From: a virus
Direction: 5' to 3' (one strand)
Virus record (IMG/VR): IMGVR_UViG_3300044939_000165
Span: 1-64,000 of that record
DNA: 64,000 nt
Part shown: piece by piece, positions 16,596 through 26,355 of the stretch
How the letters are laid out: every line of letters starts with the position of its first letter
Numbering within the stretch: position 1 is the stretch's first letter
The notes under the pieces: model-generated
Database searches by the model: none
What the model was told of the DNA's origin: nothing
Seen by the model: the letters and a program-made list of their open reading frames with translations, nothing else
Translations under genes and position numbers: made by a program

Positions 16596-17219
16596 TTAGC
16601 CCTCTTGTAGTAGTTCTAGTGCTGTGCTGGCGTCGGGTAGTTGGCGTATGACTGTGCTGAATGCAGTGTGTACATTCGTTCGATTTGTGGGTGTGTCTTC
16701 ACATATCAGTGAGAGCACAGCTGCGCACAATTCGACTATTTCGGTTAGGCGCACGGCTTCAGGGGTAGGCGCGTCTTTGAGTTTTTCGAGTTCAGCGCCA
16801 ATGCGTGTTGCTAGGTCTATGATCTCAGGATCATCTTGTGTGATCCGTTCTGTACTGTTGGGGTTTTGTCCGATTTCAATAGCGCGTTTAAGTTGTGCAT
16901 AAATGGCTTCGTAGACGCCTCCATGTAAATTCAAGTACTTGTACAGAAGTACGTGTGTTAGAGCAGCCAGTTTCCATGGTGCGTCGTGTTCAATACGGTT
17001 GTTTAAGACTAGTTGGACGAGCTGTTGTCCAAGCGAGATAATGCTCGGGACGATTTGCTGTAGATCGGCGTGTTGTTGGTAAACTGTCGAGCGCAACACG
17101 TCCCAGTCTTCTTTGTCGAGCGCGTTGGCCATTGTATCGAGATGACCAACGAGCATCTTGGCGTCGAATTGGATGTGTGCGATTTTGCGGCGTAGATCTT
17201 CTTTTGTTTTCTTGTCCAT
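16596..17219 (-). CDS. Hypothetical helical protein (207 aa)
   Basis: Almost entirely helical in appearance, with hydrophobic segments that look like helix-bundle packing (VPSIISLGQQLVQLVL). No family recognised. It directly precedes the helicase gene and may be co-expressed as an accessory factor, which is inference from position only. No ribosome site before ATG 17219; a strong hairpin sits 12 nt upstream. Confidence 0.6.
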   Translation of the reverse strand: MDKKTKEDLRRKIAHIQFDAKMLVGHLDTMANALDKEDWDVLRSTVYQQHADLQQIVPSIISLGQQLVQLVLNNRIEHDAPWKLAALTHVLLYKYLNLHGGVYEAIYAQLKRAIEIGQNPNSTERITQDDPEIIDLATRIGAELEKLKDAPTPEAVRLTEIVELCAAVLSLICEDTPTNRTNVHTAFSTVIRQLPDASTALELLQEG

Positions 17220-18897: not shown

Positions 18898-19127
18898 GGA
18901 AGATTGCGTACATCGCGGATCATATCGCGTAGTTGTTTACCTAATGTAAGTGCGCTCAAAAACAATTTTACCCATTCTAAAGGGTTTGTTGTTTTGCGCA
19001 TTTCTTCAATATCGCGATCGCTGAGCTTTTCTAGCTCTTTTTTGATTTGTTCGATTTGAGGGTCTAGTTGCCCGTCAAGCGATGCGTTCGCATATTCTTC
19101 AATAGCATTGAGTACTTCGTCCAGCAT
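18894..19127 (-). CDS. Hypothetical acidic helical protein (77 aa)
   Basis: Starts MLDEVLNAIEEY, very acidic and helical in the first half (IKKELEKLSDRDIEEM), with a hydrophobic segment VKLFLSALTLGKQL near the C terminus. Not recognised. It shares a 3-bp overlap of stop codons with the convergent lipoprotein gene. Upstream, 19152-19184 contains an inverted repeat (TGTACTA/TAGTACA) that may be an operator. Confidence 0.5.
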   Translation of the reverse strand: MLDEVLNAIEEYANASLDGQLDPQIEQIKKELEKLSDRDIEEMRKTTNPLEWVKLFLSALTLGKQLRDMIRDVRNLP

Positions 19128-19185
19128 GATTTTGCCCCGCTGCTGATAATTCCGCGCTGTACTATAACTTAGTACATGGCGCGGG

Positions 19186-19224
19186 AGAACAAGCCCGCCG
19201 CTTACGCTGCGACGGGCTTGTTCC
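19186..19224. terminator. Hairpin overlapping a stop codon
   Basis: GAACAAGCCCG (19187-19197) pairs with CGGGCTTGTTC (19213-19223). It includes the 3' end of the leftward gene ending at 19202. No T-run follows. Confidence 0.6.
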
Positions 19225-19621
19225 TAAGCGCGGAGCTTTTCTGGAAAAACTGAATGAGTGCGTTGCTGACGCGTCGTAACTCAGCGCGTGTCATTGCGCT
19301 ATCGAGCATACGCAGTGTGAAGCGTCGTTCTGCACGTACTGTGCTTGGCCAGCTATACCAGCTGATGCCGGCAAGCTGGTCATGCACATGCAAGAACGCG
19401 TCTGCAATGCGTTCAAGTGCAAGACGAGCTTTTTTGCTATCTGTTTCGTCAATCGCTGCGATCGCTGTATTTGCATATAGTAAAGCACGGCAGCGCATTG
19501 CGGTTAGAGGATCGAGTCCGATGAGCACTACCCCAGAGCGGCAGCGCTTTCGGCAGATTGAGACGAGCTTCGGGAAACTAACTGTCGGTTTGATTACAGG
19601 CAGTTTGACGAGGTTGCTCAT
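19202..19621 (-). CDS. Hypothetical protein (139 aa)
   Basis: Basic, helical protein with an N-terminal beta segment (NLVKLPVIKPTVSFPKL) and Ala/Arg-rich helices. Good ribosome site (AAAGGA, about 8 nt). No family recognised. It starts only 17 bp from the divergent gene at 19639. Confidence 0.55.
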   Translation of the reverse strand: MSNLVKLPVIKPTVSFPKLVSICRKRCRSGVVLIGLDPLTAMRCRALLYANTAIAAIDETDSKKARLALERIADAFLHVHDQLAGISWYSWPSTVRAERRFTLRMLDSAMTRAELRRVSNALIQFFQKSSALRNKPVAA

Positions 19622-19638
19622 GTGACTATCCTTTCGGT

Positions 19639-20049
19639 ATGGAACATTCGTGTACGTCAGTTGGTGCTTTCCTGATTCGTAATCAGGACTTGATCATGGG
19701 CCTACTTGTTTGGCCATTTATTACGGCCATTCTAAATGTGGCCCTGCGAAAAAAGACGCCCGAGCAGTGGGAGGCCTGGGCGTTGTCGAAACCAGCGCTC
19801 GCATTTGTGTTTGAAGTAATGCGTGCGAGCGGTGTCGATTTGTTTAAGGTGTTGCAAGCATTTCACCGCTTTGCGCAGCGTCGAGCTGGAATGATTCCAG
19901 CAGATGCGGTGCGAGTATCAAGCTTGCCGGAACCCTTGAAGGCGGCGCTGCGCAATCCGGAGACGGTTAAGTTATTGGTTGAAGCAGCTGCTAAGTTCCA
20001 AGAGGCACAGACGTCTGATTCGATGATGCCCGAGCCCACAGAGAATTGA
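19639..20049 (+). CDS. Holin-like single-membrane-segment protein (136 aa)
   Basis: Residues about 18-35 (LIMGLLVWPFITAILNVAL) are a clear membrane segment, followed by KKTPEQWEAW and a long amphipathic helix with DLFKVLQAFHRFAQRR. This resembles small phage membrane proteins often annotated as holin-like. The lysis role is inferred from topology and from the lipoprotein gene nearby; there is no endolysin directly next to it. Its 3' end overlaps the convergent ATPase/peptidase gene by 59 bp. Confidence 0.5.
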   Translation: MEHSCTSVGAFLIRNQDLIMGLLVWPFITAILNVALRKKTPEQWEAWALSKPALAFVFEVMRASGVDLFKVLQAFHRFAQRRAGMIPADAVRVSSLPEPLKAALRNPETVKLLVEAAAKFQEAQTSDSMMPEPTEN

Positions 20050-21325
20050 TCACGGCTTCGTTGATTTTGTGAATGGCTGCGATATGCGAGACTGTTCCAT
20101 CTTCGCCGAAGTCGTGTGCGAATTCATGCACAAGTAATGTGACTAGCTTACCGAAGTTGCTGAGCGTGGACCGTGCAATGGAGATTTGATTTCCGTTGTG
20201 CAGGCCCTCGACTTTTTCTGACGCAAAACGCACAATTGCAACGCGATTTATGGCGTCTTTGACGTATGGTCGAATAAGGTCTAGTGCAGCGAATAGATTG
20301 CTGCGTTCGTTTTCCGTTAGAGCATACAGAGGGAAACGTGTTTCGATTTTTTCGCTGTATTCTTTACTTATTTGTTCAGGTGTTGGCAGTCGATAGCGCA
20401 GTAAGTTCACCAATTTGGGGGCTAGAGGGACGGGTGTGTATCCGAGGTGTTCTAAGCTAGATCCCTCAGCTGTGCCAACAACTGGTACGGCGTTTTCACC
20501 GTATTCTTTTCGAAATTGACTGAGCATTGCGTCAATAAGACTTTCTGGTGCGATGTATGCAAAAACTTCTTGTTCGGCTGCTTCTTGTTCGAAGCTCTTA
20601 TACATGCGCGCGATGAGTTTACTGTCTTCGCGCTTTGCTATTTCGTTCCACATTTTGCTGATCGCTAAGTTAATGTCGTAATTCGACGGTATACGTCGAT
20701 CGCGACCAGTATCAACGTTGAAGAAATTGTATCCGAAGGTGTATTTGTTGCGTGTAGTGACGTAAACACCTCGGACATAAACTTTTCCGATGAAGCGCGG
20801 GTCGTCGATTAGCTCCCCCGCTGACGTTTTGTGTACGCTGTTTGGCGGATTCAAACGTAAAAACCAACTTTGAATCATCTCCCAAAATTCTTTATTGATT
20901 CCTTGGATGATGACTTCGAAGTTGTTGGTTGTCCGTTTAGTTTTGGTGATGTTGATACAAAGTGTCTCAACGCCAAGGTTGTCTTTCTCAATTAAAGGTT
21001 TCCATGTTTCGTCGCCGTTTTTGATCGTGACGTCGATACCATCGCGCGCAAATACTAGCATTGCTAGTTTGAGACCTTCACCGTACTGCCCGATGTAGTG
21101 CACATTTCCTCGTTTTGAGGATTCACCGAAGTACAGTGATTTAGGGTTTATTTTTATATTTTCGTTACGTACTGTGAGCTGGGATTTGTCAGCGTCGTAT
21201 TTTACGCTGAAGTTTGCGCCGTGCTCAGTTTCTGAGTCAATGGCGTTAGCTATTATCTCGCGCACCGCGTGCGCTAGTTTCCATTCAGCAACATAGTTGC
21301 TTGTGATGGGGTAGCGGAATTTCAT
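19991..21325 (-). CDS. GHKL ATPase fused to an HExxH metalloprotease-like domain (444 aa)
   Basis: The N terminus has the Bergerat (GHKL) ATP-binding signature: Glu23 and Asn27 in VREIIANAID (N-box) and the glycine lid GQYGEGLKLAML (79-90). The C terminus has HEFAH (400-404), the zinc-metallopeptidase HExxH, with a further His at 414 in GTVSH as possible third ligand. The middle (about 130-330) is unrecognised. A plausible reading is an ATP-gated protease or a phage rIIA-like ATPase that gained a peptidase domain; the fusion is seen directly, the activity is inferred. Good ribosome site (GGGAGG, about 8 nt). Confidence 0.75.
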   Translation of the reverse strand: MKFRYPITSNYVAEWKLAHAVREIIANAIDSETEHGANFSVKYDADKSQLTVRNENIKINPKSLYFGESSKRGNVHYIGQYGEGLKLAMLVFARDGIDVTIKNGDETWKPLIEKDNLGVETLCINITKTKRTTNNFEVIIQGINKEFWEMIQSWFLRLNPPNSVHKTSAGELIDDPRFIGKVYVRGVYVTTRNKYTFGYNFFNVDTGRDRRIPSNYDINLAISKMWNEIAKREDSKLIARMYKSFEQEAAEQEVFAYIAPESLIDAMLSQFRKEYGENAVPVVGTAEGSSLEHLGYTPVPLAPKLVNLLRYRLPTPEQISKEYSEKIETRFPLYALTENERSNLFAALDLIRPYVKDAINRVAIVRFASEKVEGLHNGNQISIARSTLSNFGKLVTLLVHEFAHDFGEDGTVSHIAAIHKINEAVINSLWARASSNQTSVPLGT

Positions 21326-21395
21326 GGCAAAACCTCCCGTGTTGAACCCACAATGGGTCCAACAACAGAGGCTTTTACCACTTAATAACGAATCT

Positions 21396-21761
21396 TTACG
21401 ACGTACGAAGTGCTCCTGGTATTTCAGGAGCAGGTTCGGCGTAGGCGAGGTATTCGCACCATCCGCGTTCGCGGATTACGGCGGGTACAACGGTGTATGT
21501 GCCAGGGAAAAAGATGTGTTGCGTGCGCCGTACAAGATCAGTTCGATCGACGCCATCATCGCGGTGGCGTAGCCGCAGTATCAGTGCATCAGTACCATTA
21601 GGCTGTATAGGACGGAGTACAGCTTGCGCTTCAAGCCCCGAAGATAACGGCGTAAATGTGTCAGCTGGAAAAAATTCTTCGCCTTCTTCAGCTGCACGGC
21701 GCGACATTTTCTGAATTTCTTGTGCGCGCAATAGGAGATAAAGGTATTCTGAATGTTCCAT
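21396..21761 (-). CDS. Hypothetical protein (121 aa)
   Basis: Last gene of the leftward operon 23413-21396. N-terminal helix (YLYLLLRAQEIQKMSRRAAEE), then a beta-rich region. Not recognised. The start overlaps the previous stop as TAATG. It contains one copy of the overrepresented 10-mer (21647). Confidence 0.6.
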   Translation of the reverse strand: MEHSEYLYLLLRAQEIQKMSRRAAEEGEEFFPADTFTPLSSGLEAQAVLRPIQPNGTDALILRLRHRDDGVDRTDLVRRTQHIFFPGTYTVVPAVIRERGWCEYLAYAEPAPEIPGALRTS

Positions 21762-22171
21762 TAGCGTACAGGTTTTGGATCAGGCACAAGAGGAAGTGAT
21801 GCTACGAAGTATTCGTATGCTGCTTTACGCGCATCATTAATTTCTTCGGCTGAAGCTGGGATGTCCTTAGCATTGAAGATGTTGAGTGCCATCAGCTCAG
21901 CAGCGAACATCGCAGCGCGTGGTGAAAGCCTGTAGTCCTGTACACAGAGAGCAAAGAACTTTGTAAGTTTTACAGCTACGTGTTTGGCGACATCATAATC
22001 TTCAGTGAGTTCATACGGCTCATTGAAGCCAAAGGGGTCGTTTGGGTCGCGTTCAACACGTTCAGCAGTACGTTCAGCGAACGTTGAACCATTGAGCTGT
22101 TCATATAGCTCGTTGAGCTTGTCTGCTTCTCGGTTTTGCCCTGGAACATAAATTTTGGGTTGGACTGTCAT
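21761..22171 (-). CDS. Hypothetical protein (136 aa)
   Basis: Helical protein with an acidic middle (DPNDPFGFNEPYELTEDYD) and a helix with FFALCVQDYRLSPRAAMFAAEL. No family recognised. Overlaps the upstream gene by 4 nt (ATGA). Confidence 0.6.
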   Translation of the reverse strand: MTVQPKIYVPGQNREADKLNELYEQLNGSTFAERTAERVERDPNDPFGFNEPYELTEDYDVAKHVAVKLTKFFALCVQDYRLSPRAAMFAAELMALNIFNAKDIPASAEEINDARKAAYEYFVASLPLVPDPKPVR

Positions 22172-22425
22172 GGTGCGTTATTTTTTACAGCATCAGTACA
22201 AGAAATTAGTACTTTCGAGCCATCAACAATGAATGGTTTGGCAATTGGTTCGTCTTCATTTACACGATGCACGCCTTCAGGAATGATTTGTCCGTCGGGT
22301 GTTTTATGTGGGTAGATTGATTTTTTGGTGCACCAGCCATACCACGCTTCTTTGAAGCCTTTGGGCGTAAATTTAAATTGAGGGTCGTAGTAGATGCAGT
22401 CTCGGCATTTAATGGTGTTGCTCAT
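22168..22425 (-). CDS. Small Cys-rich protein (85 aa)
   Basis: Cys at CRDCIYYD (near the N terminus), WCTKK (about residue 32) and SCTDA (about 75) suggest a metal site or zinc-ribbon-like fold. Not recognised. ATGA overlap at both ends places it firmly in the operon. Confidence 0.6.
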   Translation of the reverse strand: MSNTIKCRDCIYYDPQFKFTPKGFKEAWYGWCTKKSIYPHKTPDGQIIPEGVHRVNEDEPIAKPFIVDGSKVLISCTDAVKNNAP

Positions 22426-22928
22426 GTAGTGTTCCTTACGATCTCAAGGTAATGCTCAGCCATGAGCTTATCAAAATTTGGGATTGTGAGTCGAGCTTGT
22501 GTAAGTACAAGGGCAAGTCGATCAACTGCCATTGCTTGTGCAAGTTTGGCATCATGTGAACTTGCGGCAGCATATAGCTTGACTGGTCCGAGCTCAAATA
22601 TGACGCGTGGGCCGAGGATTGCTTCTTCTTTGAGTGAAAGTTTTTGCTTTGCGAGCAGTTCTACGAATTCTCTGGTTGCAGCTCGCGATAAAAACTCACC
22701 AAACACGTGCATTGCTGCCGTTTTAGCGTTGTTAACGGCAGAGTCATCGCGTTTGAAGCTAATGGGCAGCGTTATGAGTAAGTGATATTGACGCCCTTGT
22801 ATTGCAACTGGCGTTCGGCCGGGGCGCATCTTTTCGCGCAGCTGTTCCTCAACAGTTTGCGCGGGCTCTTCACGCGTGAGGCTCCATGGGCTGAGAATGC
22901 CTTTTGGTGTTTCTCTTTCGCGTGTCAT
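22422..22928 (-). CDS. Hypothetical protein (168 aa)
   Basis: Mixed alpha/beta composition. A strand (QYHLLITLPISF) follows a charged N terminus, and a helical C-terminal half contains LAQAMAVDRLALVLTQA. No recognised family. Overlaps both neighbours by 4 nt. Confidence 0.6.
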   Translation of the reverse strand: MTRERETPKGILSPWSLTREEPAQTVEEQLREKMRPGRTPVAIQGRQYHLLITLPISFKRDDSAVNNAKTAAMHVFGEFLSRAATREFVELLAKQKLSLKEEAILGPRVIFELGPVKLYAAASSHDAKLAQAMAVDRLALVLTQARLTIPNFDKLMAEHYLEIVRNTT

Positions 22929-23413
22929 GTCGAATTATTGCCACTACTCATGATGATGAGTGGAGCGCCGCCATTGAGACCTTTTGGATCATTGCAGTCT
23001 TTGTGTGCGGTTTCATAACCTGCACTGCATCGCATTGCTGGGATTTTGTCGGAGTCTAAGGCGGGTCCTTCGGTGCGCAGGATTTCAACAATCCGGTCAC
23101 CACGTTCATAAACCTTACCGCAAAATAGACACTGGTAATCTGGGGCTCGGGCTGGCACGAAATCTGGATCTCCAACTTTGAGTTTACTGCGAGGGATTTC
23201 ACGATGCATCCATTTTACATCGGGGGTTGCACAGCGTGCATGCGCTAATTCAATTACTTCGTTTATATAAACGGTGCGAGCCAAACCAGCGCCTGGTCCT
23301 ATGCCGGCAACCGTTAGGACTTTGATCACAGCGTGACCAGGACCTAACGGTTGCCGGCAAGTAACGCAGTGTGTGGTTGGGACGCGATCGGGGACGTCAG
23401 GAAACACAAACAA
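22925..23413 (-). CDS. Two-module zinc-binding protein (162 aa)
   Basis: Two Cys-rich modules: THCVTCRQPLGPGHAVIK with HARC further on, and YQCLFCGKVYERGDRIVE with C/H residues near CSAGYETAHKDC. Each looks like one zinc site. The first usable start is TTG 23413 (or GTG 23407); no ribosome site is evident, so the start is uncertain. First gene of the operon. Confidence 0.55.
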   Translation of the reverse strand: MFVFPDVPDRVPTTHCVTCRQPLGPGHAVIKVLTVAGIGPGAGLARTVYINEVIELAHARCATPDVKWMHREIPRSKLKVGDPDFVPARAPDYQCLFCGKVYERGDRIVEILRTEGPALDSDKIPAMRCSAGYETAHKDCNDPKGLNGGAPLIIMSSGNNST

Positions 23414-23464
23414 ACGTAATTCTACGCAAGGTACGGCGTCAATATTTGAGGAACTTTACGCCGT

Positions 23465-25540
23465 TTACAATGCGTTAGGATAATCACGTTTCTTTACGAT
23501 GGGTACGATCGTAGAGGAAGTTGTGTTCTCAGGCGTTACTTTATCGGCAAGCATTGTGAGAAAGCGGAGCACTTTGTCTTTTTCGTAGGTTGTGGGCATT
23601 GGTAAGGCGTTGCGCACCTTACTAGAGTATTTTTTGGTATTCCTGTAAGCGCGTTTGTCAAGCAGGGCGACGACACCCATATCTGTCTCAGTGCGGATTA
23701 GGCGACCAGCACCTTGTTTCAGATCCATGATTGCTTCTTGTAAATCGAAGTCTTCCCATGTTTGGATCTGAGCACGGCCCTGTTCATAGCCTTGCTCTAT
23801 GAGATGTTCAACAACTGCTTCTTTGCGCGCTTGTAGTACGACGTCACTTGCGTTTGGGAACGGTAGTCGAGGAATGATGACTAGACGTAGAGCAAGACCT
23901 GGTTGGTCGACGCCCTCCCAAAATGTTTTCACTGCAAATAGCGCTCCTCGCGGTGTTTTACGAAACCACTCTAACATCGATTCGGGAGAGCTTGTTTGTG
24001 TTGCAATAATGTATGGTGTTGTTCCGTTTTTTGGTTCTTGGCGTAACAGCTCACGGCATCCATCTGCTAGGTTATTCATGTCGTCGTAAGATGCGCAAAG
24101 TACAAATGCGCCTCCTCGTGACGCGACGAGTAGTTCGTGGATTTCGCTGCTCAGGGCCGCGTAGTATTCGTCTCCGCGAGACGAAGGATCTGGTGCCGTA
24201 GGTGAAATGTACGCTGTTGAGCGAGATTTGTAATCAAATGGAGATGGCAGTGTAGTTTTGATGGTGATTTGACTAGCATGAAGACCGTATTCACGGGCCA
24301 TGTAGTCCATTCCGTTAGCTGTTGCGAGAGTCGCGCTCGTTATAACGACTCGCTTAATTCCAATGAGCGCGGGTGCAATTATCGGTCCTATTTCAATTGG
24401 TGTGACGACAATTTCTGGTACTTCGCTACGACCGCGTTTCTCAACGTAGCATAAGTAGTCGGTTTCATCGCCGTCGATGATATCGCCTTCTTCGTTACGT
24501 ATTACATGCTTCCCAAGCACAATCTTGACGAGTTTGCGGCATTTTTCGATTAGTACTGCACCAGCTTTAAGTTTTGCGCGTGCTGTCGCTATAATGCTGT
24601 CTGTTGTGTCGGCTGCGTCGTCTTCATTAAGTAATCCTTTTATAGCCAACCTTTCGTAGATGCGTTCAAGTTCTTCGTGTAAATCTTCAAATACCTGTAT
24701 TAACTCAGGAGTTAAATTGAGCTTATCGTTCTTTACCGGCACCTTTGTAAAAATTGTGTTATAGATGTTGTCGAGGATTTCGTGCGGTTCATATTCAGTG
24801 CCGTTGAACAAACGCCGGAGCATTTCAGGGTGTTTGTGATGCAGTTTTAGTGAGACTGCTTCGCGAAAATATTTTGGTGCTTGATGCGCTTCGTCGATTA
24901 CTAGTGCGTCGTATTTGCCAAGGATTTTGCCACCACCAACCGAAAGATCATAAGCAAGGAGTGCGTGGTTTACGACGACAATTTGAGCATTAAGCGCAGC
25001 ATCTCGTGCAGCGATATAGCCGCACGCGTTTTCAGCGTATGGGCAACTTTTACGTACACACTCAGCGACGCGTATAAGATTTTCTAATGTGAATGGTGGG
25101 CTCAGTTCTGAGAGATCGTTAGCTGCGCTTTGCTCTATCCACTCTTCGATGGTGTTGCGCTCATACTGCGGTAACTGTTTGTATGCGTCGGTTGTGATCA
25201 ACTCCTTGAAACGGAGCATGCAAGCGTAGTTGTTTTTGCCTTTTAGCAAAGCGTATGTTGTGGGCTTGATCTTGCTGGTAAGAAATGGCAGATCTTTTTC
25301 TATGAGCTGAGTTTGAAGCGTTTTCTTTGCGGTTGAGATGACTACGCGCTTGTTGCTTAACAGAGTAGGGATTAGATATGCGAAGCTTTTGCCTGTTCCG
25401 GTGCCGGCTTCTAGAAACGCGATACCTCCTGCTTCGCTTGTCAAAATCTCTTCTACGAGGCGCGTCATTGTGATTTGTCCTGGACGGACTGTGCGTACGA
25501 CGCCGGCTTGAGGGTTGTTCAACCAATCAGTTGCTGCCAT
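23465..25540 (-). CDS. DinG/XPD-type superfamily 2 helicase with Fe-S cysteines (691 aa)
   Basis: ATP-dependent 5'-3' DNA helicase of the DinG/XPD type. In the 700-aa open frame the Walker A is EAGTGTGKS (53-61), DEAH box 225-228, Cys116, Cys170, Cys175 and Cys182 in the 4Fe-4S position, and the late motif QGAGRLIRTETD. The start at ATG 25540 (MAATDWL, residue 10 of that frame) is preferred because of GGGGAG upstream. Fe-S helicases of this kind unwind forked DNA, D-loops and R-loops. The gene faces away from the tail operon across an 80-bp gap. Confidence 0.9.
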   Translation of the reverse strand: MAATDWLNNPQAGVVRTVRPGQITMTRLVEEILTSEAGGIAFLEAGTGTGKSFAYLIPTLLSNKRVVISTAKKTLQTQLIEKDLPFLTSKIKPTTYALLKGKNNYACMLRFKELITTDAYKQLPQYERNTIEEWIEQSAANDLSELSPPFTLENLIRVAECVRKSCPYAENACGYIAARDAALNAQIVVVNHALLAYDLSVGGGKILGKYDALVIDEAHQAPKYFREAVSLKLHHKHPEMLRRLFNGTEYEPHEILDNIYNTIFTKVPVKNDKLNLTPELIQVFEDLHEELERIYERLAIKGLLNEDDAADTTDSIIATARAKLKAGAVLIEKCRKLVKIVLGKHVIRNEEGDIIDGDETDYLCYVEKRGRSEVPEIVVTPIEIGPIIAPALIGIKRVVITSATLATANGMDYMAREYGLHASQITIKTTLPSPFDYKSRSTAYISPTAPDPSSRGDEYYAALSSEIHELLVASRGGAFVLCASYDDMNNLADGCRELLRQEPKNGTTPYIIATQTSSPESMLEWFRKTPRGALFAVKTFWEGVDQPGLALRLVIIPRLPFPNASDVVLQARKEAVVEHLIEQGYEQGRAQIQTWEDFDLQEAIMDLKQGAGRLIRTETDMGVVALLDKRAYRNTKKYSSKVRNALPMPTTYEKDKVLRFLTMLADKVTPENTTSSTIVPIVKKRDYPNAL

Positions 25541-25620
25541 CTTGGGCTTCTCCCCGGTTACATACAAACTTGGTACGATTTATATCTATATACCATTATT
25601 AGGTAAAGGAGTTAGACAAA
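25541..25620. promoter_or_regulatory. AT-rich divergent promoter region
   Basis: This 80-bp gap between the DinG-like gene (-) and the first tail gene (+) contains TATATCTATATACC (about 25581-25594), TAGGTAA and the ribosome site AAAGGAG for the gene at 25621. It must hold promoters for both directions or read-through sites; no canonical -35/-10 with 17-bp spacing is seen. Confidence 0.5.
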
Positions 25621-26355
25621 ATGGCTGAAGAGATCCGTCGCCCTGGTGAATACGGCGTAAAGACCTCAACGTCATCTTCAACAACTTCATCTGCGACAAC
25701 GTCGCCGGCAACTATGCCTGGTGTACCCCCCGCACCACCTTTGCCACCGTCTGCACCGGTGTTTGATCCACGCAATCCTGCTGATCAACTTGCACAAGAA
25801 ATACTCAATGCGGCGCCACCAGCGGCGACACCTGAAGAGCGCCTAAAGCAGATTGAAGAAGCGCGAGCCAAAGCTAAGGAGTATTTAAGTCTGACACCCG
25901 CTGAGCGGTGGTTGCGCAATATCAAGAACGCAGGCCTGACCGAAGCTGAGGCTAACGAAATTCTCGATAAGGTGTTGGAACAGGGTTATTGGGAAAAAGA
26001 GTACGCGCTTTACAACGGGCGACTTAAGATCACGCTTCGATCGCGTGACGCTGCTGCCAATCAACGTGTTGCTAACGCGCTTGATGAAGTACGTTCATTC
26101 GATCAACGTGTGCTTGATCAAGCGCGGCTGCGTGTGCAGCTTGCGTGTTCGCTTGTTCGTTTTCGGGATAAAATTCTCCCAACTGCTGCGCCGGATGAGG
26201 ATCCGGCGAAACATGAAGCCGCTTTTCGCGCACGATTGACATTTTGTGATCAGTACATTGCGGGGCCAATTGTTGAAGCTGTTTATCGTGCGTTGATCGA
26301 CTTCGATGCTAAAACCTACGCTGCGTTGAGTGAGGGTGCTCCAGCGGGTTTTTGA
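25621..26355 (+). CDS. Tail assembly chaperone, upstream frame (244 aa)
   Basis: First gene of the tail operon, strong ribosome site. The N-terminal 60 residues are Ser/Thr/Pro-rich and disordered. Residues about 90-245 resemble phage tail assembly chaperones: LTEAEANEILDKVLEQGYWEKEYALYNGRL (read in parts), then LKITLRSRDAAANQRV. It lies two genes before the tape measure, the classic position of the lambda G/GT pair. It ends at a -1 slippery heptamer G-GGT-TTT directly before its TGA stop. Confidence 0.75.
   Translation: MAEEIRRPGEYGVKTSTSSSTTSSATTSPATMPGVPPAPPLPPSAPVFDPRNPADQLAQEILNAAPPAATPEERLKQIEEARAKAKEYLSLTPAERWLRNIKNAGLTEAEANEILDKVLEQGYWEKEYALYNGRLKITLRSRDAAANQRVANALDEVRSFDQRVLDQARLRVQLACSLVRFRDKILPTAAPDEDPAKHEAAFRARLTFCDQYIAGPIVEAVYRALIDFDAKTYAALSEGAPAGF
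26346..26352 (+). promoter_or_regulatory. Predicted -1 ribosomal frameshift site (GGGTTTT)
   Basis: The last two sense codons are GGT TTT before TGA; with the preceding G they form X-XXY-YYZ (GGG TTT T). Slipping back one base re-pairs both tRNAs well (GGG, TTT) and continues as TTG ATC CGC into the ORF at 26352-26777, giving a 385-aa fusion. Confidence 0.75.

What the first reader, a model, noticed from the sequence alone, without database searches (positions are those of the whole stretch)
19991..21325. GHKL ATPase and HExxH peptidase in one polypeptide
The N-box, glycine lid and HEFAH motif are all in one 444-aa frame. GHKL ATPases with a zinc-peptidase domain suggest ATP-controlled proteolysis, which is how several anti-phage and counter-defence proteins work. 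The neighbouring genes are five small unknown proteins in one operon, so this could be part of a counter-defence or host-takeover module.
Basis: partly seen in the sequence, partly recalled or inferred. Interest (0 to 1): 0.65.

Follow-up and report, generated by a model that had tools for sequence, protein, structure and literature searches.

The report
Phage chaperone-like ATPase fused to protease
This phage gene makes one protein that joins an Hsp90-type nucleotide-switch domain to a zinc-protease domain; the same fusion turns up in other viruses and on bacterial and archaeal plasmids, often among anti-virus defence genes, so it probably cuts chosen proteins when a nucleotide switch is thrown.

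Summary
The minus-strand ORF 19991-21325 encodes 444 aa with an N-terminal GHKL (Bergerat/Hsp90-type) module and a C-terminal HEFAH zincin. E23, the lid GxxGEGxK and HExxH are invariant in all 42 aligned peptidase-bearing homologues, mostly 20-31% identical. AlphaFold2 plus Foldseek and profile searches support the Hsp90-like half firmly and the zincin half moderately.

This is a member of a wider GHKL-zincin family for which I found no description in the papers searchable here. Full-length members occur in many phages and on bacterial and archaeal plasmids or contigs. One sits inside a type I restriction-modification operon, others beside Argonaute/SIR2/PLD genes or dprA. In the tree a large phage clade without the peptidase (59 rows) nests among peptidase carriers, which suggests loss. 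All 97 rows of the main phage clade lack the G1 aspartate that recognises adenine, so nucleotide specificity may have shifted. A covarying hairpin sequesters the gene's Shine-Dalgarno.

Best reading: a nucleotide-gated metalloprotease. A counter-defence or anti-restriction role is plausible but unproven; DNA-roadblock removal is the main rival. New variant of a known kind. Activity, ligand and substrate are untested.

The parts
19991..21325 (-). GHKL-zincin protein gene, 444 aa
   Evidence: PHROG 6077 (unknown function) E=1.7e-62; AF2 pLDDT 87
20951..21325 (-). N-terminal GHKL (Bergerat/Hsp90-like) module, residues about 1-125
   Evidence: HATPase_c E=7e-4, below its curated cut-off; P_loop_sacsin matched by 18 of 19 members, best 3.3e-8; Foldseek Hsp90/TRAP1 E=5.6e-10
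21236..21259 (-). N-box E23..N27..D30
   Evidence: E23 42/42, N27 40/42, D30 41/42
21149..21166 (-). Degenerate G1 motif (N54-E-N-I-K-I59 in place of DxGxG)
   Evidence: Asp 0/97 in the main phage clade against 20/22 in the deep set
21068..21091 (-). Glycine lid G79-QYGEGL-K86
   Evidence: G79, G82, E83, G84, K86 42/42; residues 70-79 low confidence in the model
20558..20950 (-). Middle (transducer, S5/Hsp90-M-like) region, residues about 126-256, with R208-D209-R210
   Evidence: Foldseek alignments extend over Hsp90 N and M domains; R210 42/42
20021..20347 (-). C-terminal zincin domain, residues about 327-435
   Evidence: domain model pLDDT 94.5, pTM 0.84; all 9 profile hits in the PDB are zincins; Foldseek best selecase/jannalysin/Wss1, weak
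20114..20128 (-). HEFAH, H400 E401 H404
   Evidence: 42/42
20084..20086 (-). H414, candidate third zinc ligand (D-G-x-x-x-H motif)
   Evidence: H in 32/42; other lineages carry DxTxxFE; ligand role is inferred
21324..21381 (-). Leader RNA hairpin pairing the Shine-Dalgarno GGAGG and, in the window, the AU of the start codon; core CCAUUGUGG
   Evidence: MFE -35.1, z -6.9; 5 pairs with two-sided changes in 3 sequences; most stable of 39 gene leaders folded
21396..23413 (-). Five small genes without Pfam or PHROG matches (21396-21761, 21761-22171, 22168-22425, 22422-22928, 22925-23413), mostly overlapping start to stop
   Evidence: relatives of them lie in the same order in L093, L094, L095 with some members missing or not detected
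23465..25567 (-). DinG/XPD-type helicase at the head of the same run
   Evidence: Helicase_C_2 2.9e-34; phrog_2488 3e-57

Best explanation
The protein is a nucleotide-gated metalloprotease. SHOWN by sequence and predicted structure: an Hsp90/RIIA/sacsin-type GHKL plus transducer module followed by a small zincin (HExxH, candidate third ligand H414). INFERRED: nucleotide binding closes the lid and pairs two N-terminal modules, as in Hsp90, MutL and MORC; this brings or uncovers the zincin over a bound client, which is cut; hydrolysis via E23 resets the switch. INFERRED, less sure: in the phage it is turned on the host, most likely against defence proteins such as restriction complexes, while relatives on plasmids serve in or regulate defence loci. 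Its translation is probably held back by the leader hairpin, as would suit a protease needed in limited amount or at a set time. The protease architecture I hold at about 0.75, nucleotide gating at about 0.6, the counter-defence role at about 0.35; the figure below is for a nucleotide-gated metalloprotease.
For: Invariant E23, lid and HExxH together over 42 homologues mostly 20-31% identical. AF2 model with Foldseek to Hsp90 N+M at E=5.6e-10 and then viral RIIA proteins. C-terminal profile hits only zincins in the PDB; Pfam SprT-like the commonest weak hit, 14 of 41. Plasmid homologues with the same two ends: Salinibacter ruber pSR56 within hsdM-hsdS-[gene]-hsdR, followed by a separate YgjP/SprT-type metalloprotease; Natrinema near SIR2, Piwi and PLD genes; Halorussus near a type I R-M cluster; Streptomyces and Euzebya directly after dprA. 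Precedents: GHKL paraMORCs fused to HEPN effectors in R-M loci (PMC3710099); RIIA orthologues, N-terminal GHKL with variable C-terminus, listed as poorly understood counter-defence (PMC7824862); HsdR is a natural protease target through ClpXP (PMC4231737).
Against: No biochemistry. The G1 Asp that recognises adenine is missing in all 97 rows of the main phage clade, so ATP itself may not be the ligand. Foldseek support for the zincin domain alone is weak (best E=0.18). Catalytic-residue geometry was not measured. Many phage relatives do well without the peptidase (59-row clade), so proteolysis is not needed for the family's core function. No known anti-defence gene was recognised next to it in the window.
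Confidence: 0.6

Rival explanations
1. DNA-roadblock protease: the GHKL module acts as a DNA clamp, as in MutL and MORC, and the SprT/Wss1-like zincin removes proteins cross-linked to or stalled on DNA ahead of phage replication.
For: The window gene lies in a run headed by a DinG/XPD-type helicase and near a UvrD-type helicase; UvrD-type genes are adjacent in two divergent relatives, L126 and L129; SNF2 helicases lie nearby in L133 (read from its translation) and in Moorella phage MTATph1. The weak zincin hits include Wss1, WLM and Spartan.
Against: Hits to Wss1/SprT are no better than those to other zincins; neighbours vary and phage early regions are rich in helicases anyway; plasmid members lie in defence loci.
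Confidence: 0.22
2. Hsp90/RIIA-like chaperone or scaffold, with the zincin as a substrate-binding or auxiliary part; proteolysis is minor.
For: A large phage clade has lost the peptidase; some members keep the domain but have lost HExxH (Halorussus L158, L130); the best fold matches are Hsp90.
Against: HExxH is retained in the whole 34-row phage peptidase clade and over a very wide range of sequences.
Confidence: 0.15
3. Regulator of its own partners: the protease matures or removes phage proteins (virion or operon products) and does not act on the host.
For: Gene order with five small unknown genes is largely kept in three relatives; phage zincins with suspected maturation roles are known (PMC7824862).
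Against: The gene is not in the structural region; neighbours differ completely in other phages and on plasmids.
Confidence: 0.12

Closest known systems
Exiguobacterium phage vB_EalM-132 AYP68649 (hypothetical protein)
   Same: Same two domains end to end, 25% identity, HETIH at 402; best BFVD hit by rank is a 437-aa protein, TM 0.72, probably the same one
   Different: No function assigned; the letters at the D-G-x-x-x-H position differ
T4 RIIA family
   Same: N-terminal GHKL plus transducer; many RIIA entries are the next BFVD hits (TMq 0.35-0.42)
   Different: RIIA is about 640-1050 aa with another C-terminus and no zincin match seen here; aligned only over the N-terminal part
Hsp90/TRAP1 and sacsin SRR modules
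   Same: Fold of GHKL plus middle region; NCBIfam P_loop_sacsin in 18 of 19 members; some plasmid homologues have three tandem modules, as sacsin does
   Different: No protease in those; the G1 Asp is lost in the phage clade
paraMORC-HEPN (Ymh) proteins in R-M loci (PMC3710099)
   Same: GHKL ATPase joined to an effector domain in restriction loci
   Different: The effector is an RNase fold, not a protease; different GHKL branch
SprT/WLM (Spartan, Wss1) and minigluzincins (selecase, jannalysin, proabylysin)
   Same: HExxH helix, small strands, following ligand helix; weak profile and fold hits
   Different: No member scored convincingly against one family; fused to GHKL
TmtA (PADLOC; from memory the Tiamat defence protein)
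   Same: 11 of 19 relatives hit TmtA models in their GHKL part, best 6.6e-8
   Different: The window protein itself has no hit at E 0.1; the system name is recalled, not verified

Membership tests
GHKL (Bergerat-fold) ATPases | N-box E..N | tested here: met
   E23, N27, D30 nearly invariant
GHKL (Bergerat-fold) ATPases | G1 motif DxGxG with adenine-binding Asp | tested here: not met
   N54 in the window; Asp 0/97 in the main phage clade, 20/22 in the deep homologues. It is therefore called a derived, GHKL-like relative, not a canonical member
GHKL (Bergerat-fold) ATPases | G2 lid GxxGxG and the Bergerat fold | tested here: met
GHKL (Bergerat-fold) ATPases | ATP binding and hydrolysis | not testable with these tools
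   needs protein
Zincin metallopeptidases | HExxH | tested here: met
   42/42
Zincin metallopeptidases | third zinc ligand downstream | tested here: inconclusive
   DGxxxH (H414), D....H or DxTxxFE in 39 of 42 rows; 3 rows fit none; ligand role not measured
Zincin metallopeptidases | zincin fold | tested here: inconclusive
   confident model; profile hits all zincins; Foldseek weak, prob 0.89 or less
SprT-like/WLM family | match to the family profile | tested here: inconclusive
   14 of 41 weak hits to SprT-like, best 6.4e-4; none for the window domain
T4 RIIA | RIIA architecture (N-terminal GHKL, own long C-terminal part) | tested here: not met
   N-terminal resemblance only
T4 RIIA | RIIB partner gene next door | not tested
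   no RIIB hit among the neighbours scanned, but RIIB was not sought as such
TmtA (Tiamat) | match to PADLOC TmtA models | tested here: not met
   no hit for the window protein; relatives match weakly

The most novel reading that the evidence does not exclude
An undescribed family of nucleotide-gated proteases shared by viruses and by defence loci of bacteria and archaea. In the main phage clade the switch no longer reads adenine as other GHKL proteins do, and may respond to another nucleotide, possibly a signal made during infection. The phage form would be a captured defence-locus protease turned against restriction complexes.
Probability: 0.18. Interest if true: 0.82.

Novelty: new variant of a known kind. 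Interest (0 to 1): 0.6.

Why it matters
GHKL switches are known to drive DNA clamps, chaperones, kinases and, in R-M loci, RNase effectors; a GHKL switch wired to a protease adds an effector type. The family has cultured carriers (Exiguobacterium phage vB_EalM-132, Moorella phage MTATph1, plasmid-bearing strains), so it can be tested. It also bears on the old question of what RIIA-type phage GHKL proteins do, because the peptidase-less phage proteins annotated 'RIIA' or 'histidine kinase' appear to descend from a protease-bearing form.

Tried and rejected
(1) HExxH as a chance motif: rejected by conservation and composition. (2) Literature on a GHKL-metallopeptidase fusion: 'GHKL'+'metallopeptidase'+'phage' and 'GHKL'+'zincin' each gave one paper (PMC7824862), which does not describe the fusion; only open-access papers are held. 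(3) TmtA/RmrA meaning: not found in the library. (4) A constant functional partner gene: neighbour clustering found none across the family; only close relatives share the small-gene run. (5) Known RNA family in the leader: no Rfam hit in window 19000-26000. (6) Host or taxonomy of the phage: no tRNA in the window; its 1374-aa protein has no match in 50,697 phage records, so host unknown. (8) A second profile scan with two sequences found nothing new.

Full report
WHAT IS THERE. The frame at 19991-21325 is on the minus strand, 444 aa, ATG start, in a virus record of 123,104 bases. The third GHKL motif, G1, is degenerate (N54-E-N-I). HExxH is expected 0.018 times in a protein of this make-up, and only one other occurs among 383 open stretches of the window.

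HOMOLOGUES. PHROG 6077 (unknown function) matches at 1.7e-62. tblastn finds 111 phage records, most covering only residues 1-320. Scans of viral contigs and genome contigs gave further homologues. They fall into short proteins of about 330-435 aa without HExxH and longer ones, mostly 424-522 aa, with HExxH about 35-50 residues from the C-terminus in most. In an alignment of 42 long ones, mostly 20-31% identical to the window protein, HExxH, E23, G67, G79, G82, E83, G84 and K86 are invariant and N27 is in 40. After HExxH comes either D-G-x-x-x-H (the window type), D....H, or D-x-T-x-x-F-E; three rows fit none.

STRUCTURE. AlphaFold2 on 19 sequences gave mean pLDDT 87 and pTM 0.68 with a disordered ATP lid. 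Foldseek against the PDB returns Hsp90/TRAP1 N plus M domains (E 5.6e-10); against viral models a 437-aa protein at TM 0.72 (probably the Exiguobacterium phage homologue), then peptidase-less phage proteins and RIIA. The C-terminal 133 aa alone modelled at pLDDT 94.5. Foldseek for it is weak but points one way (selecase, Wss1, jannalysin; best E 0.18), and a profile search of the PDB returned nine hits, all zincins.

BEYOND PHAGES. tblastn in plasmids and genome contigs shows the same architecture in Salinibacter, haloarchaea, Croceicoccus, Streptomyces, Desulfofundulus, a Dojkabacteria contig and a Thermoproteota contig. Alkaliphilus carries three GHKL modules and Aneurinibacillus at least two plus a partial one, each before one peptidase. 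A few have the domain but have lost the motif (Halorussus L158, L130). Contexts: inside the type I R-M operon of S. ruber pSR56, followed by a YgjP/SprT-type metalloprotease gene; a Natrinema stretch with SIR2, ADP-ribosylglycohydrolase, Piwi and PLD genes; near a type I R-M cluster in Halorussus; directly after dprA in Streptomyces and Euzebya. These are single cases on seven or so plasmids, not a statistic. In 150 genomes of one phylum only three had a member, so the family is rare in cells.

EVOLUTION. On a tree of 119 N-terminal modules (peptidase columns left out; quick method, unrooted) the label 'with HExxH' needs 5 changes (shuffled mean 39); one of these, L134, is a frameshifted contig whose HExxH lies in another frame. 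The 59 short phage proteins form one starred branch among peptidase carriers. The simplest reading is one main loss in phages, but the tree is not rooted and the sampling started from this protein. In the main phage clade (97 rows, with and without peptidase) the G1 Asp is gone in every row (N 64, S 26, T 6, K 1) while E23, N27 and D30 are kept in all 97 and the lid in all but one residue of one row; in the 22 deeper rows Asp is present in 20. The clean split suggests a changed nucleotide pocket; what it binds is unknown.

NEIGHBOURHOOD AND CONTROL. The gene ends a run: DinG/XPD-type helicase, five small genes without Pfam or PHROG matches, then this gene. Relatives of these genes keep the order in L093-L095, with some members missing or undetected. 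Just upstream lies a hairpin with a UUG loop whose stem takes in the Shine-Dalgarno and, in the window, the AU of AUG (MFE -35.1, z -6.9). Homologous hairpins in L009 (z -5.4) and L010 (z -2.2) have different stems and the same CCAUUGUGG core, with two-sided changes at 5 of 16 pairs. It is the most stable of 39 leaders folded in this window. Three sequences are few, so this is a strong lead, not proof.

MECHANISM. Shown: two domains and their conservation. Inferred: nucleotide-driven closure controls a protease. Role: the plasmid contexts, the RIIA resemblance and the precedent of GHKL-effector fusions in R-M loci (PMC3710099) favour a conflict role; ClpXP control of HsdR (PMC4231737) shows why a protease in or against an hsd operon makes sense. 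The rival of a DNA-roadblock protease rests on helicase neighbours and on Wss1/SprT resemblance.

VERDICT. Observation confirmed; interpretation partly supported; a new variant of a known kind, interest 0.6.

Noticed in passing
window 21324-21381, minus strand; L009 and L010 upstream of the gene: Covarying hairpin that sequesters the Shine-Dalgarno of this gene; the most stable of 39 leaders folded in the window; no Rfam match. Possible new translational control element.
   Followed up: partly
L100:7429-8943 (also L107, L137, LR745208.1): A second, distinct GHKL protein encoded a few kilobases away in some of the same phages; the L100 copy ends in HELAH. Related genes in L107 and L137 by clustering and in an uncultured 485-kb phage.
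   Followed up: partly
G004:C26 (Omnitrophota MAG), L092/L150/L152: GHKL-zincin-like modules, the second with EEIAH in place of HExxH, lie in an open frame reported as 48,300 aa.
   Followed up: no
L125:6406-8687: The gene after the GHKL-zincin is a MoxR-like AAA ATPase followed by a DUF2201_N putative metallopeptidase protein.
   Followed up: no
L143 and L159 (Streptomyces and Euzebya plasmids): dprA directly upstream of the GHKL-zincin gene in two distant actinobacterial plasmids with different subfamilies of it.
   Followed up: no
L158:7980-9422 and L130: Members that keep the C-terminal domain but have lost HExxH, probable pseudo-enzymes.
   Followed up: partly
window 17219, minus strand leader: A perfect 15-bp GC-rich hairpin just upstream of the 207-aa gene at 16596-17219 (MFE -32.9).
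   Followed up: no
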